DNA from: Thraustochytrium sp. TN22
Taxonomy: Eukaryota > Sar > Bigyra > Thraustochytrida > Thraustochytriidae
Assembly (NCBI GenBank): GCA_013306675.1
Contig: JABLUY010000049.1
Coordinates: forward strand, 1 to 64,000
Direction: 5' to 3'
DNA length: 64,000 nucleotides
The notes beneath the pieces were generated by a model. It had not been told where the DNA came from and made no database searches. It saw only the letters and a program-made list of their open reading frames with translations. This document shows, piece by piece, positions 32,789 to 55,872 of this stretch. The translations under genes were made by a program, and so were the position numbers. The number at the start of each line of letters is the position of its first letter. Position 1 is the stretch's first letter.

Positions 32789-33299
32789 CCTCGTCCTTTG
32801 CCTCTCCGTCCGTGCTCTGCTCTTTCGCCTGCGCTCTCCCTGGGTCTGGTCGGCCCGGCCCGCGCTGCGCCGCGCCGCGCCGCGGCGGTGGAGCCCGAGT
32901 CCGCGCGCGACTTTACGACGGCGGCGCCGTGGCGGCGGCTGACCGTTGGGAATAGGCCGCGGCCTATCCGGGCAGGTTTTTCCCAGCGCGGCGAGGAAGG
33001 CAGGAAACCATCACACCCTTTGGTCTTTTGCGGCGCGGAAACCGCGACGCGAGAGCGGAGTCACTCTCTCGCTTGAGAGTGCAGGTGCAGCCAGAAGTCG
33101 CCTCTTCTGAGTGGCCCGCGTAGGAGCGAAAGGCTGGCGGCGCGGAAGCCGCGACGCGAGATCGGAGTCTTTGAGAGTGCAGCCAGAAGGCGTCTCTTTT
33201 TTTAGCGGCCCGCGGAGGAGCAAAAGGTTGGCTACTTTTTAAAACGTTGTGCCCTTCGTCTTGCCCACGCATAGAGCTTGCCTTGCCCTGCAGGCGCGC
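32789..33299. other. intergenic region with a diverged 105-bp duplication
   Basis: This is the 5' flank of the NPHP4-like gene. Two similar segments, about 33030-33125 and 33135-33235, share GGCGCGGAA-CCGCGACGCGAGA, GAGAGTGCAG and CAGCCAGAAG blocks. No gene is seen. Confidence 0.5.
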
Positions 33300-34150
33300 C
33301 AAGATAGCTCTGGTCACATTGTCACTCCCTCACTCTACTTTTGTTCCTTTTTGCATGTACCTGGACGGTCTCGCCATTTTGCGCGCTCTTACTTGTTGAG
33401 ACCAAGGACGGCAGAGGAAGGAGGAGACGGCCGAAAAGGCGGTCGAGTGCAGCGAGAACTCGTCTCGCCAAGATAGCTCTGGTCGCATTGTCATTCCCCA
33501 CACACTCTAATTTGTTCCTTTTTGCATGTACATGAACGGTCTCGCCATTTTGCGCGCTCTTACTTGTTGAGACCAAGGACGGCAGAGGAAGGAGGAGACG
33601 GCCGAAAAGGCGGTCGAGTGCAGCGAGAACTCGTCTCGCCAAGATAGCTCTGGTCGCATTGTCATTCCCCACACACTCTAATTTGTTCCTTTTTGCATGT
33701 ACATGAACGGTCTCGCCATTTTGCGCGCTCTTACTTGTTGAGACCAAGGACGGCGACGATGGTGGAGAGGAAGGAGGAGACGGCCGGGAAGGCGGTTGAG
33801 TGCAGCGAGAACTCGTCTCGCCAAGATAGCTCTGGTCGCATTGTCATTCCCCCCACACTCTAATTTGTTCCTTTTTGCATGTACATGAACGGTCTCGCCA
33901 TTTTGCGCGCTCTTACTTGTTGAGACCAAGGACGGCGACGATGGAGGAGAGGAAGGAGGAGACGGCCGAAAAGGCGGTCGAGTGCAGCGAGAACTCGTCT
34001 CGCCAAGATAGCTCTGGTCACATTGTCATTCCCCCCACACTCTAATTTGTTCCTTTTTGCATGTACATGAATGGTCTCGCCATTTTGCGCGCTCTTACTT
34101 GTTGAGACCAAGGACGGCGACGATGGAGGAGAGGAAGGAGGAGACGGCCG
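33300..34150. repeat. 171/182-bp tandem copies of the MICU-like gene 3' end
   Basis: The word GTTCCTTTTTGCATG starts at 33343, 33514, 33685, 33867 and 34049, giving periods of 171, 171, 182 and 182 bp. The innermost unit overlaps the last about 17 codons and stop of the MICU-like gene (stop at 34095). Each outer unit repeats those codons, the stop and about 100 bp of 3' flank. The two period classes differ by an 11-bp block (GACGATGGWGG). Units are nearly identical, which suggests recent expansion or ongoing homogenisation. Confidence 0.9.
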
Positions 34151-36500: not shown

Positions 36501-39500
36501 TTATTGTTCAAGGACAACGCCAGTCCCCTGGACTGGGACGCCTGCTTCCTCCATCTTGAGAATATGTATCATGCCGGATGCATCTGCGAGGACGATTGTT
36601 TTGCCCCGAAGCACGCAACGACGAATGCGATGTTCCGTCCTGAAGCCAACCCAACCGTCGCCGGGCATGATCTGGTGTCCGTGCGATATTTTGAGGGTGC
36701 TGCAAGGCTCGGCGTTCGCGCTCGACGTCGCAACTTGCGCGTCGACTTGCGCGTAGGACTGCAAGTCCCAGTATAGGGCCTTGCCGGACTCATCCTCGCT
36801 GGAGACGATGCCGTCGGCCAAAGTCAGGCTCGTGACTGCTGAGGTGTGCCCCGCAAGCACGCGCAGCAGGTCGCCGGTGCGAGAGTCCCACACGCGAACC
36901 GTCTTGTCTGAGGATCCAGACACGACCCGGTCGCCTTGGACAGCGACAGACTTGACGTGTGACGCGTGCCCGGTGAGCACGTGCAGTGGGTCGCCGGTGC
37001 GAGCGCTCCATACGCGCACCGTGTCGTCGTCAGACCCAGAGACGACCAGGTCACCGTACAAAGCCACACAAGTGATAGCACCTGTGTGGCCCTCGAGCAC
37101 GTGCAGCTCATTGCCGGCGTGAGCGTCCAACACGCGCACCGTCTTGTCGTGCGAGCCAGCGACGACCAGGTCGTCATCCAACGCCACACTGAAGGCTTCT
37201 TCCGCGCGGCCCTCGAGAATATGCAACTGGTCGCCGGTGCGAGCATCCCACACGCGCACCGTGTTGTCCCACGCCCCAGACACGATCCGGTCGCCGTACA
37301 AGGCCACGCTGGAGACGTGGGATACATGTCCCTTGAGCACGTGCAGCAGGTCGCGAGTGTGAGCATCCCAGACGCAGACTGTGTCGTCCCACGAGCCAGA
37401 TACGATCCAGCTACCACTGAGGGCCACGCTGCTGACCCAGGACGTGTGCCCCTCGAGCACATGCAGCTGGTGGCCTGTGTGCGCGTTCCACACGCGGACC
37501 GTGGTGTCCCTGCCCCCGGACACAATCCAGTTACCGACGGAAGCCACACTATCGACTTTGTCCGTGTGCCCCTCGAGCAGACGGACCTGCTCGCCGGTGC
37601 GAGGGTCCCAGACGCGCACCGTGTGGTCCCAGGACGCAGATATGATCCGGTCGCCGTCGAAAACCACGCTGGTGATGGCGTCCGTGTGGCCCTCGAAGAC
37701 ATGCAGCTGCTCGCCGGTGCGGGCGTTCCACAGACGCACCGTATTGTCGTCCGAGGAATCCCAGTCGCCAGAGCCAGTCACGATCCTGTCGCCGGCGACA
37801 GCCACGCTCGTGACAGCGCGCTTGTGACCCTCGAGAAGGAGCAGCTGTTCGCCGCTGCGAGCGTCCCACACGCGCGCCGTCTTGTCCAAGGACGCGGACA
37901 CGATGCGGTCGCCATTCAGAGCCACGCTGAAGATGTATGCCGTGTGCCCTTCGAGCAGGTGCAGCTGCTCGCCAGTATGTGCGTCCCACACGCGCACCGA
38001 GTGGTCCGAAGACCCGGCCACGATCCGATTGCCATCCACAGCCACGCCAGTGAAGTAGCAGTTGGTGGTGCCACTGAGAACCTGCAAGAATGGAACGCGT
38101 GGCGGGTTGAGGGACTGCTTGACTGGGCGGAGCCATGGCCTTTGCGGCGGTCGCAGCGTGCGTCGCAAGGGGTGTTCTGGGTCGCCGATGCGCGCAAGGA
38201 CCGAGCTGGCGAGCTGGTCAGGGTCGGTGATGATGCTAAGCAAGGCCTTTGCAAGGAGTCGGGGGGTGTCGCTCTGGTCATCGAGCTCGGTCCGCAGGAC
38301 ATCGAGCAGGACGGCCTCGACGAAGGCGTGGCGCTCATTTGTCGAGGGCTTCGCCGAGAGGAGGTCGTGAACCCAGTTGAAGTCGTCGAGCAGCGCGCGG
38401 GCCTCGTTGAGCTCGCCGCTCTCTGTGAGGTGGAAAATGATGTGCTTGAGCGCGAAGACGTTGGCGTTGGGGTTGGCGAGGAGGATTTCGGCGAGCGTGG
38501 CGTGACCTTGGCTGCGATCGACCAGGAGCTTCTTGCGCGCACGACCCGGGTCGGAGAGGAAGTCGGGCATGGACTTGTGGATGAAGCGCACCGTGGTGGC
38601 GTCCACGTCGAGGAGCTGCGTGGCGCCTGCGAGCACGTCCTCGGCTTTTGCGATGTCGAGGCCGAGAATCGAGGCCGCGATGCTGACGGGCAACGGGTCG
38701 CGCGCTGCGCACATGGCGCCGAGAAGGGCGTGGTAGATCTTGGTGTTGCCGTGCAGCGGACCGTCGAGCAGCCTCTCAAAGTACTCCTCATACATGGCGT
38801 CGAGGCCGTCGGGGAAGAGGCCGGTCAGCTGAGCGGCCGTGAGGTCCTTCTCACCGTCCTCCCTGAGCTTGCTGTGGAGCATGGCGGCGTACAAGAAGAG
38901 GCCCTGCGCGCTCGCTTCGAGCTGCGGCATGGCGGCCTCGAGCTCCGCATCGTTGGCTACGAAGGGCGCGAGCTTGGCGCGAAGGAAGTTTGCGATGTCG
39001 GCTTTGTTGCGCTCGTCGTCGAGATCGAGCGTGACCGTGTCGTAGTGGCGCAGGCGCTGGCCGATCTCGTCCTCGGGCCTCGAAGCGACCAGGAGGCCAA
39101 GCCAGTCCGGCGTGTTTTTCCACTCCTGGCGAATGATGCGGAAGAGCGCGTCGCGCTGCTCGGGGTCGGCTTCGTCGAGCGCATCGAGCGCCACGACGAC
39201 GCGCGTTGCGGGCCTGTCGACCTTGGAGCACGGCTCGACGATGATGCGCCTGAACAGTGTGAGCGGGTCGGTCTGTTTGCCGGCGTTGGCGATGAGCTCT
39301 GGCGTGTACTGGTCGCGCAGGCCCGGGACGGCCGCGGCGAGCTGGTTGGCGATGCTGCGCAGGCACACCAGCACGTCCTTGGCGTCATCGTCCAGGTAGC
39401 GGAAGAAGTGAGCGGCGCCCATGACCCAGGGCTGAAAATCGGGCAGGCGCTGGGAGATGCTGGTTGCGATGGACCGTTTGGGCTGCATGGGCATGGCGAA

Positions 39501-40619
39501 GCCAAGCAGAGGGGCGCAGAGCGTGGCGACCGTGACGGACTTGCCGGCACCGGCAGGGCCGACCATGGCCATGATGCGCGCGCCCCCGCCGAGCTTCTTG
39601 GCCCAGTCCGCGACCTCGCCGAGAACCCAGAGGCGGGTTCCGGCCTCGTATTCGAGCGCCTTCTTGCGGCCGTCGAAGCAAAAGTCGTAGCCGAGTTCGA
39701 AGGGGGGCGGGCGCGACAACGGCAGGCCGGCCTCGACGCAGACCTTGACCACGCTGGTAACGGTGGCCAAGCCGGCCCACCAAAGCAGGGTCATGATGCG
39801 CGATGGCCAGCCCAGGTGCGTGGCCCAATCGACAACCTCGCTCAGGGTCCAGTGGCGGGATCCGTCCTCGCGCTTGACCGTGAGTGCCTGGTTGTGGTCC
39901 TCCTCCACCAGGGTCGTGGCGGGCGTGTCGATGCCGGCCTTGTCTTGAATCATTTCGACGAGGTAGTACATGTACTCCTCAAACGACTCGTCCTCGTCGT
40001 GGGAGAAGTCGAGATAGAGGTCGTCCTGGAAGATCATGCCGACGGCGCCAGTCCAGTCTCTTTGGCGCGGGATGGCCGGCTCCATGACGACGGCCAGCAT
40101 GTGTGCTGGCTTGAGGCGAGCGGCATGGCGGAACTCGAGCTGGCAGTTGTCCGTCTTGTCGCCACTGTTGACGACCTCGAAGTACGTCTTGGAAAGGCAT
40201 GCGACGAAGACGTCACAATCCTGGATTGAGCTGCTCATGAAGTTGATGATATCGCCCTTGGCGTTGTAGTGGTCCAGAATCACTCTGATTTGCAGCGTTG
40301 GAAGACGCGCATGGAGCCAGTCGGTCATTTTCTTCACGCGCTCGTGATTGTCGCGGCCGAGCTCGTCCTTGCCCCACTTGTGCGAGAAGAAGACTACCAC
40401 GGTCTTGTCGTGCTCCGTGGCTGGCGCCTGAGCGGAGTCCAGGTCCACCGCGCGAGGCCACGCAACCAGCCAGTAGCGTGCGAGCAGCATGCCTGCGGTG
40501 GTGGCGTTGGGGGCCGCCTTGAGCGAGGCGTCGGGGGGCGCCTTGAGCGAGGCTTCAAGCGCCTTGAGCGAGGCGTCGGGCGCCGCAGCCTCGCTGTAAA
40601 CGGGGTCTTTGCCGTCCAT
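36501..40619 (-). CDS. TIR-NACHT-WD40 STAND protein, copy A (NLR-like)
   Basis: The product has 1372 residues in one exon; the start at 40619 (ACCATGGACGGC) is chosen over an upstream GTG. An Ala/Ser/Lys/Pro-rich leader (DASLKA repeats, 5-40) precedes a TIR-like domain (about 71-215): VVVFFSHKWG (75-83) is the first strand and box 1, and DNCQLEFRHA carries Cys159 and Glu162 at the place of the C-x-x-E that holds the NADase glutamate in catalytic TIRs. The NACHT ATPase has P-loop GPAGAGKS (354-361) and Walker B VVVALDALDEAD (about 475-486). After a helical region come about eleven WD40 repeats (about 846-1295) of roughly 40 residues, very alike one another, and an 80-residue tail. The architecture matches fungal HET-E/NWD and animal NLR-type sensors. 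The ligand is unknown; an immune or incompatibility role is inference. An Atg22-like gene is divergent upstream. Confidence 0.9.
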   Translation of the reverse strand: MDGKDPVYSEAAAPDASLKALEASLKAPPDASLKAAPNATTAGMLLARYWLVAWPRAVDLDSAQAPATEHDKTVVVFFSHKWGKDELGRDNHERVKKMTDWLHARLPTLQIRVILDHYNAKGDIINFMSSSIQDCDVFVACLSKTYFEVVNSGDKTDNCQLEFRHAARLKPAHMLAVVMEPAIPRQRDWTGAVGMIFQDDLYLDFSHDEDESFEEYMYYLVEMIQDKAGIDTPATTLVEEDHNQALTVKREDGSRHWTLSEVVDWATHLGWPSRIMTLLWWAGLATVTSVVKVCVEAGLPLSRPPPFELGYDFCFDGRKKALEYEAGTRLWVLGEVADWAKKLGGGARIMAMVGPAGAGKSVTVATLCAPLLGFAMPMQPKRSIATSISQRLPDFQPWVMGAAHFFRYLDDDAKDVLVCLRSIANQLAAAVPGLRDQYTPELIANAGKQTDPLTLFRRIIVEPCSKVDRPATRVVVALDALDEADPEQRDALFRIIRQEWKNTPDWLGLLVASRPEDEIGQRLRHYDTVTLDLDDERNKADIANFLRAKLAPFVANDAELEAAMPQLEASAQGLFLYAAMLHSKLREDGEKDLTAAQLTGLFPDGLDAMYEEYFERLLDGPLHGNTKIYHALLGAMCAARDPLPVSIAASILGLDIAKAEDVLAGATQLLDVDATTVRFIHKSMPDFLSDPGRARKKLLVDRSQGHATLAEILLANPNANVFALKHIIFHLTESGELNEARALLDDFNWVHDLLSAKPSTNERHAFVEAVLLDVLRTELDDQSDTPRLLAKALLSIITDPDQLASSVLARIGDPEHPLRRTLRPPQRPWLRPVKQSLNPPRVPFLQVLSGTTNCYFTGVAVDGNRIVAGSSDHSVRVWDAHTGEQLHLLEGHTAYIFSVALNGDRIVSASLDKTARVWDARSGEQLLLLEGHKRAVTSVAVAGDRIVTGSGDWDSSDDNTVRLWNARTGEQLHVFEGHTDAITSVVFDGDRIISASWDHTVRVWDPRTGEQVRLLEGHTDKVDSVASVGNWIVSGGRDTTVRVWNAHTGHQLHVLEGHTSWVSSVALSGSWIVSGSWDDTVCVWDAHTRDLLHVLKGHVSHVSSVALYGDRIVSGAWDNTVRVWDARTGDQLHILEGRAEEAFSVALDDDLVVAGSHDKTVRVLDAHAGNELHVLEGHTGAITCVALYGDLVVSGSDDDTVRVWSARTGDPLHVLTGHASHVKSVAVQGDRVVSGSSDKTVRVWDSRTGDLLRVLAGHTSAVTSLTLADGIVSSEDESGKALYWDLQSYAQVDAQVATSSANAEPCSTLKISHGHQIMPGDGWVGFRTEHRIRRCVLRGKTIVLADASGMIHILKMEEAGVPVQGTGVVLEQ

Positions 40620-41900
40620 GGTTGCAGCAGAGGCCACGTTTCCGCGCACAGCAAGCCCGCGCTCTCAGCTCGTACGCGAGCTAGGACGAGAGGAGCAGGA
40701 CGCTGGCACGTGCCGGCATGCGCGCAGCGTCGCGGCACCCGGCACGGCACGGCCGGCAGGTGCGAGCGCTCCCTCAGCCCAGCCAGTCGCAGCAGCCGCA
40801 GCAGCCGCAGCAGCCGCAGCAGCGCCAGCAGCGCCAGCAGCCACAGCAGCTCTGTCACCACGATTGCGGCGCTTGCAGTGCAGGTACGCCAGCAGCAGGC
40901 TCTGACTGACAGTGAGGTGAGTCCAGTGCACTGAGTGCAGTGACCATTGACACTGACCATAACTAAGAGCAGCCGGGCCTGAGCTGTGCAGCCTTGCCAG
41001 CGAGCGGCCCGCGGGCCTCGGCAACCATGGCAATTCGGACTCGGACACCCGTGGCCTGACGGCTGCATTGGGTCGCGTCCGAGTCGGCGCGCCTCGTTCT
41101 CATCAGAGTCATGGTCTCGTCGCGGCGGCGGCCAGCCGGCCGGCGGCGGCGGCGCCGCCGCGGCGGCGGCGCGGCGCGTCCGTCGAGACCGGTCTGTTGC
41201 ACCGCCCAGTCACAGCTCCAAGTCGGACTCCCGAGTCGCCGGCGGGCGCCTGCCAGTGAGGGGCAGGCTGGCTCGGCTTGACGGTGAGACGCGAGCTCAG
41301 GGCTGTGCAGGACGTACAAGAGGCGCATCGCGCGGCACTGCCTGCCTGTACTGGCCTGTGCTCTTCTAGCTAGCTAGCTAGTAGAGGGAGGGAACGTAGA
41401 GATACCACCGGAGGCGCCCAGAGGCACGAGCAGGCTCGGCGCAGCCTAGCGCCGGCCACGGACGCGCATCGCGTGCGTGCGCACACACAAGAAGAACAGG
41501 GCCTCGGCGCTGGGTCCGCGATGCTCCTCCAGGCCGCGTTGCGGTTCGTCGCGGCTCGTCGAGTTCGCAGCGGTTCATGGGATGAAGCGCGCATCATGAT
41601 GATCGTCACGACTCGTACTCGTACTCGGCCTCGGACTCGAACCCAACCTCCGCGCTGCACGCACAGACAACGAACTTGACGATGCTCTGAGCAACGCTGA
41701 GCAACGCACCACGCACTCGTGCGAGCGAACGGCGGGACAAGAGCAACTGTGCGTCGACGTGGGACGGTTTTCTACTTCCCCACTCTAACTTCTACGAGGC
41801 CGAAGCCACCACTCCATCGGTGGGAGTGGGAGGGAGCCTCAGGGAGGCGAAAACGCGCAAAGCGACGGGCGAGGCGAGATATCAGGCGAGGCGAGACGAG
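40620..41900. other. divergent promoter region between STAND copy A and an Atg22-like gene
   Basis: A region directly upstream of the STAND start (CAGCAAGCCCGCGCTCTCAG and following) is also found upstream of copy B, and weaker similarity continues to about 41700. A CAGCAGCCG-type run lies at about 40785-40852, ACTCGGAC words near 41036, 41079 and 41216, (TAGC)n at about 41370, and a CATCATGATGATCGTCACGACTCG stretch near 41593. No gene is seen. Confidence 0.55.
40785..40852. repeat. CAGCAGCCG-type trinucleotide-rich repeat
   Basis: Runs of GCAGCC/GCAGCAGC, about 68 bp, sit about 170 bp upstream of the STAND copy A start and are not present at the same place upstream of copy B. Confidence 0.7.
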
Positions 41901-43481
41901 ATGAAATGGGGACGGGGACGACGCAGCAAACTTGCAAGGATGAAGCGAGTTTGTGCGCTAGAAAATGAGGCCCTGGGCTTGGTGCTGTGCTCTGCGGCAC
42001 GGGCACCAGTGATGGCGCACTTGGTTGTGTACGCGAGCGTCGCGACGAGCGCCTTCTCGAGCACAATAGGGGACTGTAGCGAGGTCTGGGTGCTCGGCAT
42101 TGTCGTGGCTGTGAGCAGTGCCGTAGCAGCCGTCGTGAGCCCCGTCGTCGGCGGGGCAAGAGATCGCGGGCGGTGGCTTCGCGTGGCCTTGGGGACGCTC
42201 GTGCTCTCCGTTGGCGTGCAGGCTGGCCTATTTTTGTCCTCGAGCGGCGAGACGAAAGAGGACGCAGCTGCAGAGACGCCGCCGCAACCGTTCTGGGGTT
42301 CCCCGACGGCGCTTGGGGTGATCGCGGCGAGCCTCGTTCTGCAGGTCGTGAGTTACGAGCTGCTGGCAGTACTGACCAACGCGTCTGCGCCAGAGGTGGA
42401 CGAGGATGCCGGAGTGGTCGCTCGAAAGGTTTGCTTGGCGCACGCGGCCATGAGGAGCGCCGCGGCGTTCCTGGTGGGAGGCGTGATGCTCCTTGCGGCC
42501 GTGGCCGGCCTGAGTGTCTTCGAGCAGGCCTCCTTGGCGTCCACCGCTGCGATTCTCCTCGCCGTAGGCCTCGCGTCGGTGGGCCTGCCAAGGCTGGGCA
42601 CGCGCCAACGGCCGAGGCAGGGCAGGCGGCACAGGTCGAGACCGGGCATGCGCAAAAGGTGGAGGTCTTCTTCCAAGCGGAACGTGTCGCTCTTCACAGC
42701 CGAGGACACCGACGATGACAATGAGACTGGGGAGACTGGGGAGACTGAGGAGCAGGAGACGGCCGCAAAGGCCACAGAGGGAGAATGCGAGCCTTGGGCG
42801 CTCTGTAGGCGTCCCCTGGGCACCTTTGCAGCGTCTTGGGCGTGCGCAGGAGCACCGCTGACGTGGGCGAGCCTGCTTGCGGCAGTCCTGCTGCAGCGCA
42901 GGGGCGCTGGACAAGCCTCGTGGATACTGTTGGTGGCCCTGTTGGCGGCAACGCCGGGTTCGCTCCTCGCAGTCGCCGTGCAGCGAGTCGTCACGATGCG
43001 CGGTGTTTACGTGGGGGGCAACTTGAGCCTCGCGCTGTGCGCGCTGGGGCTCGAGTCGGGCGCTGTCTGCCGATTGTGGGCCGCGACTGCCCTGGGCGTG
43101 GTCGCCGGCGCTGCGGGCGGTAGCGTCGCCGCCTCTGCGGATGCGCTGTTTTGCGAGCTTGCTCCCGGCGGCCGGGCCGGCACGTGGTTTGGGATTCGCG
43201 TGGCGGTGTCCCGCTCGCTAGCGTGGGCGCCGCCACTCGTGTACGTGGCACTGGGCGGGTCGTCGTGGGCCACGACGGCTGCGACAGCGCCGTTCTTCGT
43301 GCTGGCCGCCGGTCTCGGCGCGTGCGTGGACGTCGAGCAGCCGAGAGCGAGAAGTTCGCACGAGGCGGATGCGGGCGCTTTGGTGGTGGCCGAGACGGGC
43401 CTGAGTGCAGTGGACATGCTGGAGGACGCCAAAGACGGTGCGCGGGTGCGGTCACCGGTGCCCGCGCGGTGGGCATCTTAG
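41901..43481 (+). CDS. Atg22-like major facilitator protein, diverged member
   Basis: The product has 526 residues from the ATG at 41901; 41940 is an equally possible start, and the frame before them opens at a GTG. There are about 10-12 hydrophobic segments. It matches its three relatives at 54.3-61.1 kb in several landmarks: YASVATSAFSSTIGDC near the N-terminus (others LFASVATNAFA-SVADC), an ELLAVLTNASAPEV segment, and ELAPGGRAGTWFGIRVAVS near the C-terminus (others LIPGGKESTYFGIKVTF). Atg22 proteins export amino acids from vacuoles after autophagy. This copy lacks the LLFTxxNExS block and has a long, basic then acidic cytosolic loop (about 250-310, with GETGETEEQE), so it is the most derived. 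It is divergent from STAND copy A and convergent with the WD40 gene, with overlapping stops. Confidence 0.65.
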   Translation: MKWGRGRRSKLARMKRVCALENEALGLVLCSAARAPVMAHLVVYASVATSAFSSTIGDCSEVWVLGIVVAVSSAVAAVVSPVVGGARDRGRWLRVALGTLVLSVGVQAGLFLSSSGETKEDAAAETPPQPFWGSPTALGVIAASLVLQVVSYELLAVLTNASAPEVDEDAGVVARKVCLAHAAMRSAAAFLVGGVMLLAAVAGLSVFEQASLASTAAILLAVGLASVGLPRLGTRQRPRQGRRHRSRPGMRKRWRSSSKRNVSLFTAEDTDDDNETGETGETEEQETAAKATEGECEPWALCRRPLGTFAASWACAGAPLTWASLLAAVLLQRRGAGQASWILLVALLAATPGSLLAVAVQRVVTMRGVYVGGNLSLALCALGLESGAVCRLWAATALGVVAGAAGGSVAASADALFCELAPGGRAGTWFGIRVAVSRSLAWAPPLVYVALGGSSWATTAATAPFFVLAAGLGACVDVEQPRARSSHEADAGALVVAETGLSAVDMLEDAKDGARVRSPVPARWAS

Positions 43482-45265
43482 CAAAGGCGCATGCGCAGCA
43501 CAGTCTGCGCGGCGCCGACGTAGACGCGGCGCGCGTCGAGAGGGTCGAGCGTGAGCGCGGTGGGCACGAGGTCGAGATCGCCGCGCGAGATGAGCGCGCC
43601 GCCGCTGTCGAGGTCCAGCAGCGAGATGGAGGCGCCATCCGCGCCGCAGGCCAGCACGCGTGAGCCGGACTCGACGCAGAGCGGATGGTAGATGGCTTTG
43701 CAGCGCGTTGTGCCGAGCGGTTGATGCGCGAGCATGTCAAGCAGCGGGCCGGCGGTGGGCTTGCGCAGGTCGAAGAGGCGCATCTCGGCGCTGAAGCTGG
43801 TGGTGAGCAGGTGCGTGTCGTGACCGGGGCGCCATCGCACGGAGTTGACGGCGAGCGCGTGCGCCTCGGCGATGCGCGTTGCGACAGAACGCGAGCGCAG
43901 GTCTAGCACGCTTACACAGGAGTCGTTGCCGGTGGACGCGGCCGTGTGCTGGTCCCGCAGGCGCACGCTCTTGACGACGCCGTCATGCGCATCCTCGTAG
44001 CGCTGCACAAGGCGAAAGCCGTCGGCACCGTCGTCGAGCCGCGAGACCGCCACCGTGGCGTCCTTGGAGCCCGTCACGACGACGGGGCCCGTGGCGTGCA
44101 TGGAGAAGATGCCGCCGAGGTGCAAATCTTCTGGTGCGCTCGCAGCCGCGCGAGCGCGACCCGTGCTCTCGTCTTGCTGCGCTACGTCGAAGAGTTCCAG
44201 CATGCCGTCGTTGGAGGCGGCCAGCAGGAGGATGCTGTCGTCACGACGGTCTAGGAACTGCACGCTCGAGCACCACCCACGGAAAGCTTTAAAGGACAGC
44301 AGCGGCTCACTGCGTGCGCTCGTGCCAAAGATGGCCAAGCGGCCACCGTGGCCGGCCGCCGCGACGAGCGGCCGTGTCGCGTGTGCGTCCACGCAGTACG
44401 TGCGTTTGAGCGATGCATCGGTCCACTGGCAGCCGTCTTGGGCCAGCAGTCGAGTGGCGACCCTTCTTGTTTCCGTCTCAGAATCGGGCTCTGGCGCTGC
44501 GTCGTGGACGCTGTAGCTGGCCACCATGCTAGGCGCAAAGGTAATGGCAGGCTGTTCCTCGATTTCTTTTTCTTCGTGCGCAAGAGTCCCACGAGGCGCA
44601 TCGGCAGGTCCCGCAGCGAGTCGCCGGCTTCGTCGCGTGATGCGTGGTGCCGCTGGCGGTCGCTTCTGCCGACGCTTCGGGGGTTGTTTCTGGGGTCGCG
44701 CTGTTGCTGTGCCCGCAGCAGTCAGATCCTCGCCCAGTCCTAGGCTTTCTAGAAAGGCGTGATTGTTTTTGATGTTGGCGAGGCGTCGCTCTTCGTACGA
44801 ACCGGCGGCAGACTCGTCAGTCGTAGAGTCGTCCGGGAGTGGGGGTGCGTCCTGGGTCGCACCTTGCAGGTCCGCGTCCTTGGTCTTGCGATGTTCCATC
44901 TCCCGGTCAATGTCGTCGTCCACTGCAGCCTCTGCCGCAGCTTCGACCTGGCCGTCTGGTGCAGGGTCCCTTGTCACGGCGTGCGTTGCGGACGCATTGA
45001 TGAGGTCTGCGTCCTGCTGGCTCGGCGCGTCGCGGTCTGCGTCGTCGCGGTCTGCGTCGTCGTCGTCGCGGTCTGCGTCGTCGTCGCGGTCTGCGTCGTC
45101 GCGGTCTACGTCGTCGTCGCGGTCTGCGTCGTCGCGGTCTGCGCCATCCACCTCGTGTACCGCTGCCGCTGCAGCTTCACCATGGCCCTCACGGACAGCC
45201 TCCGCTACCGGCGGCGGCGCTTTCACGCGCCGCAGAAAGGGAAGCTTGAGCTGCTTCACGGCCAT
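43478..45265 (-). CDS. WDR76: CMR1/WDR76-like WD40 protein
   Basis: The product has 595 residues. CMR1/WDR76 proteins bind damaged or replicating DNA and act in genome maintenance. The N-terminus is a disordered acidic tract with many DRDDAD repeats (about 40-80). Next comes SYEERRLANIKNNHAFLESLGL, matching the family's YExxRxxNIxxNxxFLxxL helix, and a basic segment RITRRSRRLAAG like its 'SxRLxG' motif. About six WD40 repeats cover 270-590, with VNSVRWRPGHDTHLLTTSFSAEMRLFDLR typical. The start at 45265 (GCCATGGCC) has good context. The promoter must lie within 234 bp, because STAND copy B ends at 45500 on the same strand. The last codons overlap the stop of the plus-strand Atg22-like gene (stop codons share bases 43479-43480). 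Confidence 0.8.
   Translation of the reverse strand: MAVKQLKLPFLRRVKAPPPVAEAVREGHGEAAAAAVHEVDGADRDDADRDDDVDRDDADRDDDADRDDDDADRDDADRDAPSQQDADLINASATHAVTRDPAPDGQVEAAAEAAVDDDIDREMEHRKTKDADLQGATQDAPPLPDDSTTDESAAGSYEERRLANIKNNHAFLESLGLGEDLTAAGTATARPQKQPPKRRQKRPPAAPRITRRSRRLAAGPADAPRGTLAHEEKEIEEQPAITFAPSMVASYSVHDAAPEPDSETETRRVATRLLAQDGCQWTDASLKRTYCVDAHATRPLVAAAGHGGRLAIFGTSARSEPLLSFKAFRGWCSSVQFLDRRDDSILLLAASNDGMLELFDVAQQDESTGRARAAASAPEDLHLGGIFSMHATGPVVVTGSKDATVAVSRLDDGADGFRLVQRYEDAHDGVVKSVRLRDQHTAASTGNDSCVSVLDLRSRSVATRIAEAHALAVNSVRWRPGHDTHLLTTSFSAEMRLFDLRKPTAGPLLDMLAHQPLGTTRCKAIYHPLCVESGSRVLACGADGASISLLDLDSGGALISRGDLDLVPTALTLDPLDARRVYVGAAQTVLRMRLC
45017..45150 (-). repeat. coding repeat for the Asp-rich tract of the WDR76-like gene
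   Basis: GTCTGCGTCGTCGCG-type units (plus strand) encode RDDAD repeats. The units vary in length by multiples of three, as expected of an expandable, frame-preserving array. Confidence 0.75.
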
Positions 45266-45499
45266 GGCTGGCGCCGCGGCTTTCCGCGTGGCTCGTGCCG
45301 CCCGCGCGCGCGCGCGTCTGCCGCGTGTCTCGGGAGCGCGCGGCGCGCTCGACTTGGACTTGGAGCGATGGAGCCACGTGCCACGGCCCGGCGGTCGTTA
45401 GGTAGCCGCCTGTGATCAGAAGAAGAGCAATCAACTTGAACCGCAACCACTGACTCGTCAAATGAGAGAGGACCCGAGCTCCCGAGAAAAAAGATTGGT

Positions 45500-48400
45500 T
45501 TAACGTTCGAGGACGACGCCAGTTCCCTGGACAGGAACGTGTGCTTCCTCCGTCTTGGCAGGGACGCCTGCTTCCTCCATCTTGAGAATATGTATCATGC
45601 CGGATGCATCTGCGAGGACGATTGTTATGCCCCGAAGCACGCAACGACGAATGCGATGTTCCGTCCTGAAGCCAACCCAACCGTCGCCGGGCATGATCTG
45701 GTGTCCGTGCGATATTTTGAGGGTGCTGCAATGCTCGGCGTTCGCGCTCGACGTCGCAACTTGCGCGTCGACTTGCGCGTAGGACTGCAAGTCCCAGTGT
45801 AGGGCCTTGCCGGACTCATCCTCGCTGGAGACGATGCCGTCGGCCAAAGTCAGGCTCGTGACTGCTGAGGTGTGCCCCGCAAGCACGCGCAGCAGGTCGC
45901 CGGTGCGAGAGTCCCACACGCGCACCGTCTTGTCTGAGGATCCAGACACGACCCGGTCGCCTTGAACAGCGACAGACTTGACGTGTGACGCGTGCCCGGT
46001 GAGCACGTGCAGTGGGTCGCCGGTGCGAGCGCTCCATACGCGCACCGTGTCGTCGTCAGACCCAGAGACGACCAGGTCACCGTCCAGAGCCACACAAGTG
46101 ATAGCACCTGTGTGGCCCTCGAGCACGTGCAGCTCATTGCCGGCGTGAGCGTCCAACACGCGCACCGTCTTGTCGTGCGAGCCAGCGACGACCAGGTCGT
46201 CATCCAACGCCACACTGAAGGCTTCTTCCGCGCGGCCCTCGAGAATATGCAACTGGTCGCCGGTGCGAGCATCCCACACGCGCACCGTGTTGTCCCACGC
46301 CCCAGACACGATCCGGTCGCCGTACAAGGCCACGCTGGAGACGTGGGATACATGTCCCTTGAGCACGTGCAGCAGGTCGCGAGTGTGAGCATCCCAGACC
46401 CAGATTGTGTCGTCCCACGAGCCAGACGCGATCCAGCCGCCACCCAGAGCCACACTGCCGACCCAGGTCGTGTGCCCCTCGAGCACGTGCAGTTGCTTGC
46501 CGGTGTGCGCGTCCCACACGCGGACCGTGGTGTCCCTGCCCCCGGACACAATCCAGTCGCCGTCGAACGCCACGCATTCGAGTTTGTCCGTGTGCCCCTC
46601 GAGCACACGAAGCTGGTCGCCGGTGCGAGGGTCCCAGACGCGCACCGTGTGGTCCCAGGACGCAGATATGATCCGGTCGCCGTCGAAAACCACGCTGGTG
46701 ATGGCGTCCGTGTGGCCCTCGAAGACATGCAGCTGCTCGCCGGTGCGGGCGTTCCACAGACGCACCGTATTGTCGTCCGAGGAGTCCCAGTCGCCAGAGC
46801 CAGTCACGATCCTGTCGCCGGTGACAGCCACGCTCGTGACAGCGCGCTTGTGACCCTCGAGAAGGAGCAGCTGTTCGCCGCTGCGAGCATCCCACACGCG
46901 CGCCGTCTTGTCCAAGGACGCGGACACGATGCGGTCGCCATTCAGAGCCACGTTGAAGATGTACGCCGCGTGCCCTTCGAGCAGGTGCAGCTGCTCGCCG
47001 GTGTGTGCGTTCCACACGCGCACCGAGCGGTCCGAAGACCCGGCCACGATCCGATCGCCATCCACAGCCACGCCGGTGAAGTAGTTGGAGTGGTCATTGA
47101 GCATCTGCAGAAGCGGAACGCGTGGCGGTTCGAGGGACTGCTTGACTGGGCGGAGCCATGGCCTTTGCGGCGGTCGCAACGTGCGTCGCAGGGGGTGTTC
47201 TGGGTCGCCGATGCGCGCAAGAACCTCGCCGGCGAGCCGGTCAGGGTCGGTGGTGAGGCTAAGCAAGGCCTTTGTAAGGAGTCGGGGCGTGTCGCTCTGG
47301 TCATCGAGCTCGGTCCGCTGGGCATCGAGCAGGACGGCCTCGACGAAGATGTAGCGCTCATCGGCCGAGGGCTTCGCCGAGAGGACGTCATGAACCCAGT
47401 TGAAGTCGTCGAGCAGCGCGCGGGCCTCATTGAGCTTGCCGCTCTCTGTGAGGTGGAAAATGATGTGCTTGAGCACGAAGACGTTGGCGTTGGGGTTGGC
47501 GAGGAGGATTTCGGCGAGCGTGGCGTGACCTTGGCTGCGATCGACCAGGAGCTTCTTGCGCGCACGACCCGGGTCGGTGAGGAAGTCGGGCATGGACTTG
47601 TGGATGAAGCGCACCGTGGTGGCGTCCACGTCGAGGAGCTGCGTGGCGCCTGCGAGCACGTCCTCGGCTTTTGCGATGTCGAGGCCGAGAACCGAGGCCG
47701 CGATGCTGACGGGCAACGGGTCGCGCGCTGCGCACATGGCGCCGAGAAGGGCGTGGTAGATCTTGGTGTTGCCATGCAGCGGGCCGTCGAGCAGCCTCTC
47801 AAAGTACTCCTCATACATGGCGTCGAGGCCGTCGGGGAAGAGGCCGGTCAGCTGAGCGGCGGTGAGGTCCTTCTCGCCGTCCTCCCTGAGCTTGCTGTGG
47901 AGCATGGCGGCGTACAAGAAGAGGCCCTGCGCGCTCGCTTCGAGCTGCGGCATGGCGGCCTCGAGCTCTGCATCGTTGGCCACGAAGGGCGCGAGCTTGG
48001 CGCGAAGGAAGTTTGCAATGTCGGCTTTGTTGCGCTCGTCGTCGAGATCGAGCGTGACCGTGTCGTAGTGGCGCAGGCGCTGGCCGATCTCGTCCTCAGG
48101 CCTCGAAGCGACGAGGAGGCCAAGCCAGTCCGGCGTGTTTTTCCACTCCTGGCGAATGATGCGGAAGAGCGCGTCGCGCTGCTCGGGGTCGGCTTCGTCG
48201 AGCGCATCGAGCGCCACGACGACGCGCGTTGCGGGCCTGTCGACCTTGGAGCACGGCTCGACGATGATGCGCCTGAACAGTGTGAGCGGGTCGGTCTGTT
48301 TGCCGGCGTTGGCGATGAGCTCTGGCGTGTACTGGTCGCGCAGGCCCGGGACGGCCGCGGCGAGCTGGTTGGCGATGCTGCGCAGGCACACCAGCACGTC

Positions 48401-49732
48401 CTTGGCGTCATCGTCCAGGTAGCGGAAGAAGTGAGCGGCGCCCATGACCCAGGGCTGAAAGTCGGGCAGGCGCTGGGAGATGCTGGTCGCGATGGACCGC
48501 TTGGGCTGCATGGGCATGGCGAAGCCAAGCAGAGGGGCGCAGAGCGTGGCGATCGTGACGGACTTGCCGGCACCGGCAGGGCCGACCATGGCCATGATGC
48601 GCGCGCCTCCGCCGAGCTTCTTGGCCCAGTCCGCGACCTCGCCGAGAACCCAGAGGCGCGTTCCGGCCTCGTATTCGAGCGCCTTCTTGCGGGCGTCAAA
48701 GCAAAAGTCGTAGCCGAGCTCGAAGGGGGGCGAGCGCGACAACGGCAGGCTGGCCTCGACGCAGACCTTGGCCACGCTGGTAAATGTGCCCAAGCCGGTC
48801 CACCACAACAGGTTCATGCTGCGCGATGCCAAGCCTAGTCTCTTGGCCCAGTTGATGACCTCGCTCAGGATCCAGGGGCGGGGTGCGTCCTCGTGCTCGA
48901 CCGTGAGCGCCTGGTTGCGGTCCTCCTCCACCAGGGTCGTGGCGGGCGTGTCGATGCCGGCCTTGTCTTGAATCATCTCGACGAGGTAGTACATGTACTC
49001 CTCGAACGCCTCGTCCTCGTCTTGGGAGAAGTCGAGATAGAGGTCGTCCTGGAAGATCATGCCGACGGCGCCAGTCCAGTCTCTTTGGCGCGGGATGGCC
49101 GGCTCCATGACGACGGCCAGCATATGTGCTGGCTTGAGGCGAGCGGCATGGCGGAACTCGAGCTGGCAGTTGTCCGTCTTGTCGCCACTGTTGACGACCT
49201 CGAAGTACGTCTTGGAAAGGCATGCAACGAAGACGTCACAGTCCTGGATTGAGCTGCTCATGAAGTTGATGATATCGCCCTTGACGTTGTAGTGGTCCAG
49301 AATCACTCTGATTTGCAGCGTTGGAAGACGCGCATGGAGCCAGTCGGTCATTTTCTTCACACGCTGGTGATTGTCGCGGCCGAGCTCGTCCTTGCCCCAC
49401 TTGTGGGAGAAGAAGACCACCACGGTCTTGTCGTGCTCCGTCGTTGGCGCCTGAGCGGAGTCCGGGTCCACCGCGCGAGGCCACGCCACCAGCCAGTAGC
49501 GTGCGAGCAGCAAGCTTGCGGTAGTGGCGTTGGGGGGAGCCTTGAATGAGGCGTCGGGGGCCGCCTTGAGCGAGGCGTCTCGGGGCGCGACCGGGGCGTC
49601 TCGTGGCGCGATCGGGGCGTCTCGGGGCGCGACCGAGGCTTCGGGCGCCTTGAGCGAGGCGTCCGGCGCCTTGAGCGAGGCGTTGGGCGCCGCGACTGAG
49701 GCGTCGAACGCCGCGGGGTCTTTGCCGTCCAT
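45500..49732 (-). CDS. TIR-NACHT-WD40 STAND protein, copy B (NLR-like)
   Basis: The product has 1410 residues in one exon; the start at 49732 is equivalent to copy A's. It has the same domains in the same order: TIR with VVVFFSHKWG and DNCQLEFRHA (Cys189, Glu192), P-loop GPAGAGKS (384-391), Walker B, eleven WD40 repeats and a tail. Large parts are identical in protein to copy A, including most of the NACHT and WD40 repeats 7-11. Differences: a longer leader (about 30 extra residues of DASLKAP and APRDAP repeats), a diverged TIR-NACHT linker (about 285-330), WD40 repeats 5 and 6, and a nine-residue addition in the C-terminal tail. Copy and leader point to a recent segmental duplication with local divergence. 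It shares its proximal promoter sequence with copy A. Confidence 0.9.
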   Translation of the reverse strand: MDGKDPAAFDASVAAPNASLKAPDASLKAPEASVAPRDAPIAPRDAPVAPRDASLKAAPDASFKAPPNATTASLLLARYWLVAWPRAVDPDSAQAPTTEHDKTVVVFFSHKWGKDELGRDNHQRVKKMTDWLHARLPTLQIRVILDHYNVKGDIINFMSSSIQDCDVFVACLSKTYFEVVNSGDKTDNCQLEFRHAARLKPAHMLAVVMEPAIPRQRDWTGAVGMIFQDDLYLDFSQDEDEAFEEYMYYLVEMIQDKAGIDTPATTLVEEDRNQALTVEHEDAPRPWILSEVINWAKRLGLASRSMNLLWWTGLGTFTSVAKVCVEASLPLSRSPPFELGYDFCFDARKKALEYEAGTRLWVLGEVADWAKKLGGGARIMAMVGPAGAGKSVTIATLCAPLLGFAMPMQPKRSIATSISQRLPDFQPWVMGAAHFFRYLDDDAKDVLVCLRSIANQLAAAVPGLRDQYTPELIANAGKQTDPLTLFRRIIVEPCSKVDRPATRVVVALDALDEADPEQRDALFRIIRQEWKNTPDWLGLLVASRPEDEIGQRLRHYDTVTLDLDDERNKADIANFLRAKLAPFVANDAELEAAMPQLEASAQGLFLYAAMLHSKLREDGEKDLTAAQLTGLFPDGLDAMYEEYFERLLDGPLHGNTKIYHALLGAMCAARDPLPVSIAASVLGLDIAKAEDVLAGATQLLDVDATTVRFIHKSMPDFLTDPGRARKKLLVDRSQGHATLAEILLANPNANVFVLKHIIFHLTESGKLNEARALLDDFNWVHDVLSAKPSADERYIFVEAVLLDAQRTELDDQSDTPRLLTKALLSLTTDPDRLAGEVLARIGDPEHPLRRTLRPPQRPWLRPVKQSLEPPRVPLLQMLNDHSNYFTGVAVDGDRIVAGSSDRSVRVWNAHTGEQLHLLEGHAAYIFNVALNGDRIVSASLDKTARVWDARSGEQLLLLEGHKRAVTSVAVTGDRIVTGSGDWDSSDDNTVRLWNARTGEQLHVFEGHTDAITSVVFDGDRIISASWDHTVRVWDPRTGDQLRVLEGHTDKLECVAFDGDWIVSGGRDTTVRVWDAHTGKQLHVLEGHTTWVGSVALGGGWIASGSWDDTIWVWDAHTRDLLHVLKGHVSHVSSVALYGDRIVSGAWDNTVRVWDARTGDQLHILEGRAEEAFSVALDDDLVVAGSHDKTVRVLDAHAGNELHVLEGHTGAITCVALDGDLVVSGSDDDTVRVWSARTGDPLHVLTGHASHVKSVAVQGDRVVSGSSDKTVRVWDSRTGDLLRVLAGHTSAVTSLTLADGIVSSEDESGKALHWDLQSYAQVDAQVATSSANAEHCSTLKISHGHQIMPGDGWVGFRTEHRIRRCVLRGITIVLADASGMIHILKMEEAGVPAKTEEAHVPVQGTGVVLER

Positions 49733-50949: not shown

Positions 50950-51870
50950 GGACGAAGGATTGCTTCGTTGAGCTATGCTCGCGCTCTACTGCGCCTTGAC
51001 AAAGTCGGTGAGCTCCGCGGCTGCGTCTACTCCTCGGGCACGCTCTACACTGTATCAAAGAAGCTTTCTTTTTCACTTTGATCTTCGCTTTGAAGGCTTT
51101 TGCGTGTAATACCCGGCTCCACCAAGCTCGCGCTGTATTGGGTCAAGAGCACGCTTCTTGGGGCTCGCGGGTGCGTCTAGTTCTTGCGCATGCCCTTGTG
51201 CACTTGGCTGCTCTCCGTGGCCGTCTATATTGCTCGATGGTAAACCTCGAGGCCGACCCCGCTGAAGGTGCTCGCTTTGGAGAGTCGTGCTCGCGCTGTA
51301 CTGCGCCTAGAGCACGCTCACTGCGCTTCGCAGGTGCGCCTACTTCTTGCGTACGCTCTGCGCTGCGCTTCGCTGCTCTCCGTGGCCATCTCGATTGCTC
51401 AATGGTCGACCTCGAGGCCGACCCCGATGAAGATGCTCACTTTGGAAAGCCGTGCTCGCGCTGCGTTGCGCCTAGAGCACGCTCATTGCGCTTCACAGAT
51501 GCGCCTACTTCGTGTGCACGCTCCGCGCTGCGCTTGATTGCTCTCCGTGGCCGTCTTGATTGCTGAATGGTCAACCTCGAGGCCGGTCCCGCTGAAGATG
51601 CTCGCTTTGGAGAGCCGTGCTCGCGCTGAACTGCGCCTAGAGCACGCTCACTGCGCTTCGCGGGTGCGCCTACTCCATGCACACGCTCCGGACTGCGTTT
51701 GCGGCTCTCCCTGGCCGTCTTTATTGCTCAGTGACCAACCTCGGTCCCTGATGAAGATCCTTACTTTGAAGGGCCGTGCTCGCGTTGTACTGGGCCTAGA
51801 GCACGCTCCCTGGGACTCGCGGGTGTGCTTACAGTTAGTCCTCGGATACGTTCACCGTTGCGTTTGCTTG
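50950..51870. repeat. 165-bp tandem repeat array
   Basis: The landmark AGAGCACGC recurs at about 51144, 51309, 51474, 51639 and 51798 (spacing 165, 165, 165, 159), with a more diverged first unit near 50990. Units share CTCCGTGGCCGTCT and CCTCGAGGCCGACC blocks. The period is a multiple of three, so long open frames run through it on both strands, but codon content is unremarkable and no protein family is suggested. I take it as a satellite-like array. Confidence 0.8.
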
Positions 51871-54267: not shown

Positions 54268-55872
54268 ATGGCGGCCATCGGCATGGGCGAGGAGGAGGTG
54301 GGCGGCGGCAAGTCGATGGGCGCCCGGCTGAGCGGGTGGTGCGGCAGCTTCGCGAGGGATAATGCGGAGGCGCGCGGGTTCGTGTTTACGGCGGCGGCGC
54401 GAGGCCCGGTGAGCGTGTACGCGTCGCTGTTCGCGAGCGTGGCCATCAATGCGTTCGCGCTGAGCGTGGCGGATTGCGAGGGCGAGGTGCTGGGCGGTCT
54501 GATCAAGGCGAGCTCGCTGGTGTCGTCGCTGGGCGCGGTGGAGGGCGTGGTGAACGCGGTGCTGAGCCCGCTGGTGGGCGCGTTTGCGGACCTGACGCCG
54601 CACCGCAAGCTGGGCATTGGGATTGGGTTCGTGGCGATGCTGGGCCTGGTGGTGGTGCAGGCGCTGCTGTGCCTGTCCAAGGACTCGGACAAGGTGGACC
54701 CATCGGACGAGACGGGCGAGACGCTGCTGCAGCGGCCGCTGTGGCAGTCGGAGGCCGGCCTCTTGGTGCTGTGCGTGAGCATCATCGTGCAGGTGGCTGC
54801 ATATGAGTTCACGGCGCTGCTGACGTTCACGTACGCGCCGGAGACGAGCCGCGACGACCTGCAGGTGACGCGGTACATTGGGCTCTCGTACACGTACGTG
54901 AACGCGATGCAGCTGCTGCTGGCCGCCGTGGTGACGCTGCTCTCGCTGCTGCTCGGGCTGAGCGCGCTGCAGCAGGCGTCGCTGGGCGCTGCGGTCGTGC
55001 TGGTGTTCTCGCTGAGCTGGCTCGTGCCGGGTTACCCTCTGCTGGGGGCGCGGCGCGTGGTGAGCAACGAGTTCAGCAAGGCGTGCTGCGGGCTGGCGCA
55101 CATGGGCAGCTCGGCGCGCGACATCTTCACCAAGTTCCCTGAGCTGGGCAAGTTTCTCATCTCTTGGGTGCTGTGCTCGGGCGCTGTGAGCTCGGTGGCC
55201 ATCCTCTCGACCTCGTACCTGCAGTTTCACCTGGGTTACTCGGGCACGACCACCTCGGCCATCATGTCGCTGGCACTGCTGTTTTCCGTCCCGGGCTCGC
55301 TGCTCACGCACCGGCTCACGCGCTACATGACGCTCAAGAGCATTTACATTCTCTTCAACGTGCTGTATGGTGTATCCTTTGTGCTGGGCCCGGCCGTGCT
55401 TGCCGCCGACGCTGTCCCGGTGAACGACCCGAACTCCACGGTGACCAAGACGCAGTACGGGTTTTGCGACGACGTCGAGGTGGGCGATTTCGAGGAGACC
55501 CAGCAGGAGGCGCCGGCTTATGTTTTCTACATTCTCATCATCTTCACCGTCACCTGGGGCACGCTTCTGGGCGCCACCTACGTGGCGGCCAACGCCGTTT
55601 ACAGTGCGCTCATTCCCGGTGGCAAGGAGAGCACGTACTTTGGCCTCAAGGTGACCTTTGCGAAGATTTTGACCTGGCTTCCACCTCTGCTCTTCACCAC
55701 CATCAACGAGAACTCCGACACGCTGCAGTGGGGCATTGTGCCGCTCGCGCCGCTCTTTATTCTCGCTGCCGTGGTTGCCTACTTTATCAACTTTGAAAAG
55801 GCCAAGCAGGACATTGCTCATACCATGCATCTCCGCCGTGGTGCTCAATGGGAGATCGATGAAGCGAAGTGA
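54268..55872 (+). CDS. Atg22-like major facilitator protein
   Basis: The product has 534 residues with about 12 hydrophobic segments. Landmarks of this local family are present: ARGPVSVYASLFASVAINAF in TM1, SPLVGAFADLTPHRK after TM3 (the loop that carries the MFS A-like signature D-x-x-P/G-x-R), and STSYLQFHLGYSGTTTSAI after a six-helix first half. A luminal loop has VPVNDPNSTVTKTQYGFC. Near the end are ALIPGGKESTYFGLKVTFAK and LTWLPPLLFTTINENSDTLQWG. Atg22 and relatives release amino acids from vacuoles; transport of other solutes is possible. The start (GAGATGGCGGCC) has good context. It faces STAND copy B across about 4.5 kb. The C-tail is short and charged. Confidence 0.75.
   Translation: MAAIGMGEEEVGGGKSMGARLSGWCGSFARDNAEARGFVFTAAARGPVSVYASLFASVAINAFALSVADCEGEVLGGLIKASSLVSSLGAVEGVVNAVLSPLVGAFADLTPHRKLGIGIGFVAMLGLVVVQALLCLSKDSDKVDPSDETGETLLQRPLWQSEAGLLVLCVSIIVQVAAYEFTALLTFTYAPETSRDDLQVTRYIGLSYTYVNAMQLLLAAVVTLLSLLLGLSALQQASLGAAVVLVFSLSWLVPGYPLLGARRVVSNEFSKACCGLAHMGSSARDIFTKFPELGKFLISWVLCSGAVSSVAILSTSYLQFHLGYSGTTTSAIMSLALLFSVPGSLLTHRLTRYMTLKSIYILFNVLYGVSFVLGPAVLAADAVPVNDPNSTVTKTQYGFCDDVEVGDFEETQQEAPAYVFYILIIFTVTWGTLLGATYVAANAVYSALIPGGKESTYFGLKVTFAKILTWLPPLLFTTINENSDTLQWGIVPLAPLFILAAVVAYFINFEKAKQDIAHTMHLRRGAQWEIDEAK

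What the first reader, a model, noticed from the sequence alone, without database searches (positions are those of the whole stretch)
36501..49732. Recently duplicated TIR-NACHT-WD40 sensor proteins in a protist
Two single-exon genes each combine a TIR-like domain, a NACHT ATPase with intact P-loop and Walker B, and eleven near-identical WD40 repeats. STAND proteins of this design act in fungal incompatibility and in animal, plant and bacterial immunity. TIR with NACHT and WD40 in a stramenopile-like protist would be a little-described candidate defence or allorecognition system. Domain calls are from motifs read by eye; function is inference.
Basis: partly seen in the sequence, partly recalled or inferred. 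Interest (0 to 1): 0.82.

Follow-up and report, generated by a model that had tools for sequence, protein, structure and literature searches.

The report
TIR-NACHT-WD40 sensor gene pair
Two closely related genes in an unidentified eukaryote, probably a protist, encode proteins built like known immune sensors (a TIR enzyme domain, an ATP-driven switch and a propeller-shaped sensor), and some bacteria carry proteins of the same plan.

Summary
Two intact ORFs (36501-40619 and 45500-49732, minus strand; 1372 and 1410 aa) each encode a TIR domain (Pfam TIR_2, 2e-11 in B), a STAND/NACHT-type NTPase (NPHP3_N, 4e-17; intact Walker A and B), a helical region and eleven WD40 units. They are 95.6% identical in DNA, with whole-codon indels only. 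Selection is purifying on the TIR, NTPase, winged-helix and WD40 parts, near neutral in two linker regions. Corrections: the repeats are not near-identical (mean 56% identity; fungal high-conservation repeats need 85%), and 'stramenopile' was not testable; only a eukaryotic origin is supported. Paralogues could not be counted because the genome is not held. New: bacterial proteins with the same TIR-NTPase-WD40 order exist (4 of 10 relatives scanned; the best is 28% identical to B over 951 aa outside the TIR). Repeat variation here, and most clearly in one bacterial relative, sits in columns that seem to match those under diversifying selection in Podospora incompatibility proteins, but A/B differences are not enriched there. 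Best reading: an intracellular sensor whose propeller gates NTPase-driven clustering of a TIR NADase. Function is inferred. New member of a known kind, moderate interest.

The parts
36501..40619 (-). Gene A, TIR-NTPase-WD40 protein, 1372 aa, single ORF
45500..49732 (-). Gene B, TIR-NTPase-WD40 protein, 1410 aa, single ORF
39975..40409 (-). TIR domain of A (placed by homology with B)
48998..49432 (-). TIR domain of B; PF13676 TIR_2 2.1e-11 on 48998-49357, first strand placed by alignment
40134..40136 (-). Putative NADase glutamate E162 of A in the Cys-x-x-Glu motif
   Evidence: alignment; function inferred
49157..49159 (-). Putative NADase glutamate E192 of B in the Cys-x-x-Glu motif
   Evidence: alignment; function inferred
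39738..39878 (-). Linker of A: degenerate partial copy of the NTPase start, without Walker A
   Evidence: tblastn with B, 38% of 47 aa
48758..48925 (-). Linker of B: degenerate partial copy of the NTPase start, without Walker A
   Evidence: 38% over 56 aa
39078..39641 (-). STAND/NACHT-like NTPase core of A (NPHP3_N); Walker A at 39537-39560
48101..48664 (-). STAND/NACHT-like NTPase core of B (NPHP3_N); Walker A at 48560-48583
38058..39029 (-). Winged-helix and superhelical region of A (by position)
   Evidence: homology with B
47084..48052 (-). Winged-helix and superhelical region of B
   Evidence: only sub-threshold HTH_TANC1 and APAF1_C similarity; colinear with bacterial relative L005
36765..38057 (-). 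Eleven WD40 units of A
45791..47083 (-). Eleven WD40 units of B, predicted as beta-propeller blades

Best explanation
A and B are intracellular STAND-type sensors. At rest the WD40 propeller region holds the NTPase closed; binding of a ligand (invader product, altered self or non-self protein) to a propeller face frees the NTPase to exchange nucleotide and assemble into a ring or filament; this brings the N-terminal TIR domains together as an NAD-cleaving enzyme whose activity depletes NAD or makes a signal and stops or kills the cell. Shown here: architecture, intact Walker motifs, conserved Cys-x-x-Glu in the TIR, purifying selection on TIR and NTPase, bacterial relatives of the same order. 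Inferred: autoinhibition, oligomerisation, NAD cleavage, defence role.
For: TIR_2 and NPHP3_N above curated cut-offs; WD40. pN/pS: TIR region 0.20 (p 0.0005), NTPase core 0.09 (p 0.001), winged-helix part 0.09 (p 0.001), WD repeats 0.43 (p 0.004), against 0.87 and 0.83 in the TIR-NTPase linker and the superhelical part. Cys-x-x-Glu in A, B and 7 of 7 bacterial TIRs aligned. Bacterial L005: TIR_2 5.3e-19, NPHP3_N 1.8e-27, WD40 1.6e-25, 28% identical to B from NTPase to WD40 over 951 columns. Ten bacterial loci from the phylum-level draws: TIR in 7 of 10, TIR plus WD40 in 4 of 10. The six most variable of 40 repeat columns in A and B include H+2, H+3, H+5, D-1 and D+1; in bacterial L018 the top six are H+1, H+2, H+3, H+5, D-1, D+1. 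Human TEP1 (TIR-like domain, NACHT, WD40) is an active NADase (passages of PMC13174449).
Against: No enzymatic or expression data. The TIR does not align significantly with bacterial TIRs by BLASTP (best E 0.55) or hhalign (probability 0.2%), and its AlphaFold model is poor (pLDDT 49). Repeats are not homogenised. A/B differences fall in the four presumed contact columns no more than expected (2 of 23, 2.3 expected). The column pattern is less clean in L029 and L028, and no ordinary WD40 protein served as a control. Three of ten bacterial relatives from the draws, and six of the seven first found (L006-L011), show no TIR. Human NWD1, NWD2 and NPHP3, of related plan, showed no NADase activity. 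Structural matches of the propellers are not specific to STAND proteins. Copy number and strain variability unknown.
Confidence: 0.6

Rival explanations
1. A TEP1/NWD-like cellular scaffold: same parts, but the complex serves a housekeeping role (ribonucleoprotein particle, cilium or signalling scaffold) and not defence.
For: TEP1, NWD1 and NWD2 combine a TIR-like domain with NACHT and WD40, and TEP1 sits in the vault particle (passages of PMC13174449); TEP1 propeller models are among the Pfam matches above cut-off; purifying selection dominates.
Against: The TIR matches TIR_2 and not DUF4062 (listed to E 10); the WD40 cross-matches are generic (many propeller families); recent duplication and fast linkers are atypical of a scaffold (inference).
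Confidence: 0.15
2. A non-self (allorecognition) receptor like fungal HET-E/HET-D, with the propeller reading polymorphic self proteins.
For: Same three-part logic; between-repeat variation in columns that appear to match the selected Podospora codons.
Against: Repeats fail the 85% internal-conservation criterion (criterion in passages of PMC4986451); the number of WD units is the same in A and B; A/B differences not enriched in contact columns; nothing is known of cell fusion in the organism.
Confidence: 0.1
3. The TIR is an inactive adaptor and signals by TIR-TIR contacts only.
For: The TIR differs from the bacterial TIRs aligned, with insertions after the first strand and after the Cys-x-x-Glu helix; several related human proteins were inactive.
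Against: Cys-x-x-Glu kept in both copies within a region under purifying selection.
Confidence: 0.15

Closest known systems
   Same: Same domain order; L005 colinear with B from NTPase to WD40 at 28% identity over 951 columns
   Different: TIR domains not alignable by BLASTP (L005); L018 repeats average 84% identity, those here 56%; no experimental data on them seen
TEP1 / NWD1 / NWD2 (animals)
   Same: TIR-like domain, NACHT, helical part, WD40 (passages of PMC13174449)
   Different: DUF4062 in place of TIR_2; DUF4062 not matched here
Amphioxus TIR-NACHT and TIR-NB-ARC-WD40 predicted proteins
   Same: TIR joined to a STAND NTPase, and in one form to WD40, in a eukaryote (passages of PMC2575513)
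   Different: The WD40-bearing form has NB-ARC; metazoan
Fungal HET-E/HET-D (HET-NACHT-WD40)
   Same: Effector-NTPase-WD40 plan; HET has remote similarity to TIR (passages of PMC4986451)
   Different: HET not TIR_2; repeats about 85% identical and variable in number (passages of PMC1805685)

Membership tests
STAND NTPases (NLR-like) | NACHT/NB-ARC-type NTPase with Walker A and B | tested here: met
   NPHP3_N above cut-off; GPAGAGKS and VVVALDALDE; PF05729 itself below cut-off
STAND NTPases (NLR-like) | N-terminal effector and C-terminal superstructure repeats | tested here: met
   TIR_2, WD40
STAND NTPases (NLR-like) | Ligand-induced oligomerisation | not testable with these tools
   needs biochemistry
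TIR NADases | TIR domain | tested here: met
   PF13676 44.8 bits against cut-off 28; by sequence profile only, the fold model is too poor to confirm
TIR NADases | Conserved catalytic glutamate | tested here: met
   Glu of Cys-x-x-Glu in A, B and 7 bacterial TIRs; that this is the catalytic one is recalled knowledge
TIR NADases | NAD cleavage | not testable with these tools
   needs assay
Fungal high-internal-conservation NLRs (HET-E type) | Repeats over 85% identical across at least 100 aa | tested here: not met
   mean 56%, maximum 70% between repeats; criterion from PMC4986451
Fungal high-internal-conservation NLRs (HET-E type) | Variation concentrated in surface codons of the repeat | tested here: inconclusive
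   between repeats yes, between A and B no; no ordinary WD40 protein as control (the one tried gave no units)
TEP1/NWD (DUF4062) proteins | DUF4062 N-terminal domain | tested here: not met
   the TIR piece of B matched only TIR_2 and one sub-threshold family to E 10

The most novel reading that the evidence does not exclude
A unicellular eukaryote carries an expanding, NAD-cleaving TIR-NTPase-WD40 immune receptor family, related to bacterial STAND proteins of the same order, in which two young copies keep the engine nearly unchanged while their linkers and a few sensor blades diverge.
Probability: 0.3. Interest if true: 0.7.

Novelty: new member of a known kind. Interest (0 to 1): 0.45.

Why it matters
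TIR plus STAND NTPase plus repeats is a recurring immune design. A eukaryotic microbe's member that shares its NTPase and propeller plan with bacterial proteins would be a test case for how eukaryotes came by such receptors, and the gene pair is young enough to show which parts are fixed and which are free to change.

Tried and rejected
Close relatives by exact-peptide seeds: none confirmed in genome contigs or viral contigs, none in viral contigs with a three-row alignment. Plasmids by tblastn: TIR no match; NTPase two weak hits, Rhizobium johnstonii and Acaryochloris. Draw around the Phormidium seed: 0 of 292 genomes at 1e-8 (the tool notes that an empty answer shows little). NCBIfam: nothing near a cut-off. 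Solved structures by sequence: TIR piece best E 0.28, NTPase piece best E 0.23, neither meaningful. AlphaFold of the TIR with two rows: pLDDT 49, so no fold search was made with it. Rejected: chance ORFs (multi-domain homology; frame kept over 4 kb at dS 0.08). Long antisense ORFs of 1087 and 948 aa opposite A and B are taken as a side effect of GC-rich third positions (GC by codon position about 0.66, 0.44, 0.83), not tested further. Gene conversion between A and B: synonymous differences cluster weakly (p 0.03), nonsynonymous strongly (p 0.0005), so uneven constraint explains more, though conversion is not excluded. Positive selection: no region has pN/pS above 1. An 11-residue perfect match (SPPFELGYDFC) is only the overlap of the two pieces compared and was dropped. 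Literature: the listings (several showing only the best of many papers) held no paper that I recognised as describing TIR-NACHT-WD40 in a protist; the exact term 'TIR-NACHT' is in one paper, on amphioxus. The library lacks most subscription journals, so this does not prove absence.
Full report
What is there. The finding covers two long open reading frames on the minus strand. Gene A runs from 40619 down to 36501 (1372 aa) and gene B from 49732 down to 45500 (1410 aa); both begin at a shared ATG (MDGKDP). Between them lie two other ORFs: 41820-43481 (+), without a Pfam match at 1e-5, and 43478-45265 (-), with WD40-type matches. DNA similarity between A and B covers the genes (95.9% over 4020 bases) and continues in patches for about 200 bases upstream. 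So this is a gene-sized duplication with unrelated genes between the copies.

Domains. Pieces of B were scanned against Pfam: the N-terminal piece matches TIR_2 (2.1e-11, 44.8 bits, cut-off 28); the next piece matches NPHP3_N, a STAND NTPase model (4.3e-17), while the classical NACHT model reaches only 0.22. WD40 matches at 1.4e-71 in A and 4.6e-72 in B. Walker A is GPAGAGKS and Walker B VVVALDALDE in both. Eleven WD units can be read. The AlphaFold model of the last 565 residues of B has blades at pLDDT mostly 75-95 with a dip near residue 325, and a poor start and tail. One stretch superposes on a symmetric seven-bladed propeller (7bie, TM 0.92 by target length, 1.5 A). Apaf-1 is among the 50 best matches by E-value (ranks 8 and 14, TM 0.44 by query, 14.5 A), but ribosome-assembly proteins with tandem propellers match as well or better (TM up to 0.56), so this is no specific link; the overall arrangement is not reliable (pTM 0.54).

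Repeats. Nine full repeats (2-10) share on average 56.5% of amino acids and 68.1% of bases in A, 56.0% and 68.7% in B; the maximum is 70% of amino acids. That is less than the 85% used to define highly conserved repeats in fungal NLRs (passages of PMC4986451), so 'near-identical' is not correct. Variation between repeats is concentrated: the six most variable of 40 columns, in A and in B, are H+2, H+3, H+5, column 23, D-1 and D+1 (H is the histidine of the GH pair, D the invariant aspartate). In Podospora the codons under strong positive selection are 7, 9, 25 and 27, flanking conserved codons 8 and 26 (passages of PMC1805685); mapping these to H+3, H+5, D-1 and D+1 rests on recalled motif spacing, since the figure was not seen. 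Differences between A and B do not follow this pattern: 2 of 23 fall in those four columns, 2.3 expected; 18 of the 23 lie in repeats 5 and 6. No ordinary WD40 protein was analysed as a control (the one attempt, the window's WD40 gene at 43478-45265, gave no units), so the column pattern may be general to WD40 repeats.

Selection. Over 1371 aligned codons, pN/pS by region is: TIR region 0.20, NTPase core 0.09, winged-helix part 0.09, WD repeats 0.43, C-terminal tail 0.20, each below neutral (p 0.0005 to 0.04); the TIR-NTPase linker 0.87, the superhelical part 0.83 and the N-terminal tail 0.70 do not differ from neutral (overall dN 0.034, dS 0.081). All indels are whole codons. The two copies therefore keep effector and switch. 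The linker holds a degenerate partial copy of the start of the NTPase without its Walker A (38% over 56 aa; also by tblastn).

TIR. The putative catalytic glutamate (E162 in A, E192 in B) sits in a Cys-x-x-Glu motif shared by A, B and 7 of 7 bacterial TIR domains in an L-INS-i alignment. The connection is weak in statistical terms: BLASTP against L005 and hhalign against four bacterial TIRs do not find it, and the AlphaFold model is poor. The identification rests on the Pfam match. That this glutamate is the NADase residue is recalled knowledge of TIR enzymes.

Relatives. A three-row NTPase alignment found seven bacterial loci in genome contigs. The best, L005 of Verrucomicrobiaceae bacterium E54, encodes 1457 aa with TIR_2 (5.3e-19), NPHP3_N (1.8e-27) and WD40 (1.6e-25) and aligns with B from the NTPase through the WD40 region at 28% identity over 951 columns. 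The other six (L006-L011) show an NPHP3_N or AAA-type NTPase and no TIR or WD40. Draws of genomes from the phyla of five seed genomes, searched with the NTPase region of B at E 1e-8 or less, gave matches in 3 of 288, 0 of 292, 2 of 297, 1 of 398 and 1 of 282 genomes, ten loci in all. By Pfam, 7 of 10 have a TIR domain: four with WD40 (L005, L016, L028, L029), two with TPR (L017, L027) and one cut off by its contig end (L014). Three have none: L026 and L023 carry WD40 (the list of L023 was cut at 25 of 32 families, but its NTPase starts at residue 53, leaving no room for a TIR), and L006 carries neither. In L018 (the full gene of L016) twelve repeats average 84% identity and the six most variable columns are H+1, H+2, H+3, H+5, D-1 and D+1. 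Over the part-repeat columns looked at, L005 (7 units) is similar, L029 (12 units) is less clear, with D+1 not among its top columns, and L028 gave only 4 units. Seeds biased which phyla were sampled, and no eukaryotic collection could be searched, so nothing can be said about transfer or about closer eukaryotic relatives.

What it works like. The plan matches proteins in which repeats sense, a STAND NTPase clusters and a TIR domain cleaves NAD. In animals TEP1, NWD1 and NWD2 combine a TIR-like DUF4062 with NACHT and WD40; TEP1 cleaves NAD, while NWD1, NWD2 and NPHP3 did not in that assay (passages of PMC13174449). Amphioxus has predicted TIR-NACHT and TIR-NB-ARC-WD40 proteins (passages of PMC2575513). 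Fungal HET-E uses a HET domain with remote similarity to TIR (passages of PMC4986451). I judge a defence sensor with NADase output most likely (0.6), with a housekeeping scaffold, an allorecognition receptor and an inactive TIR adaptor as rivals.

Limits. The host is a eukaryote by its neighbours; no test of stramenopile or labyrinthulomycete origin was made. No expression or biochemical data were available. All papers cited were seen as passages found by search terms, none in full.

Noticed in passing
48758-48925 and 39738-39878 (-): The linker between TIR and NTPase holds a degenerate partial duplicate of the NTPase start that lacks the Walker A motif; the linker evolves near neutrality.
   Followed up: partly
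7584-10193 and 11094-14156 (+): Two RCC1-repeat ORFs partly alike in DNA (80% over 304 aligned bases), another local duplication.
   Followed up: no
54268-55872, 57386-58468, 59344-61128: Three stretches partly alike in DNA (about 70-76%); the last matches Atg22, the others were not scanned. Possibly a tandem family.
   Followed up: no
33297-34132 and 51126-51812: Tandem arrays with 182-base (4.8 copies) and 165-base (4.2 copies) units; the first overlaps the 3' end of an EF-hand ORF.
   Followed up: no
36966-40229 and 45992-48838 (+): Very long antisense ORFs (1087 and 948 aa) opposite A and B, taken as a by-product of GC-rich third codon positions.
   Followed up: no
   Followed up: partly
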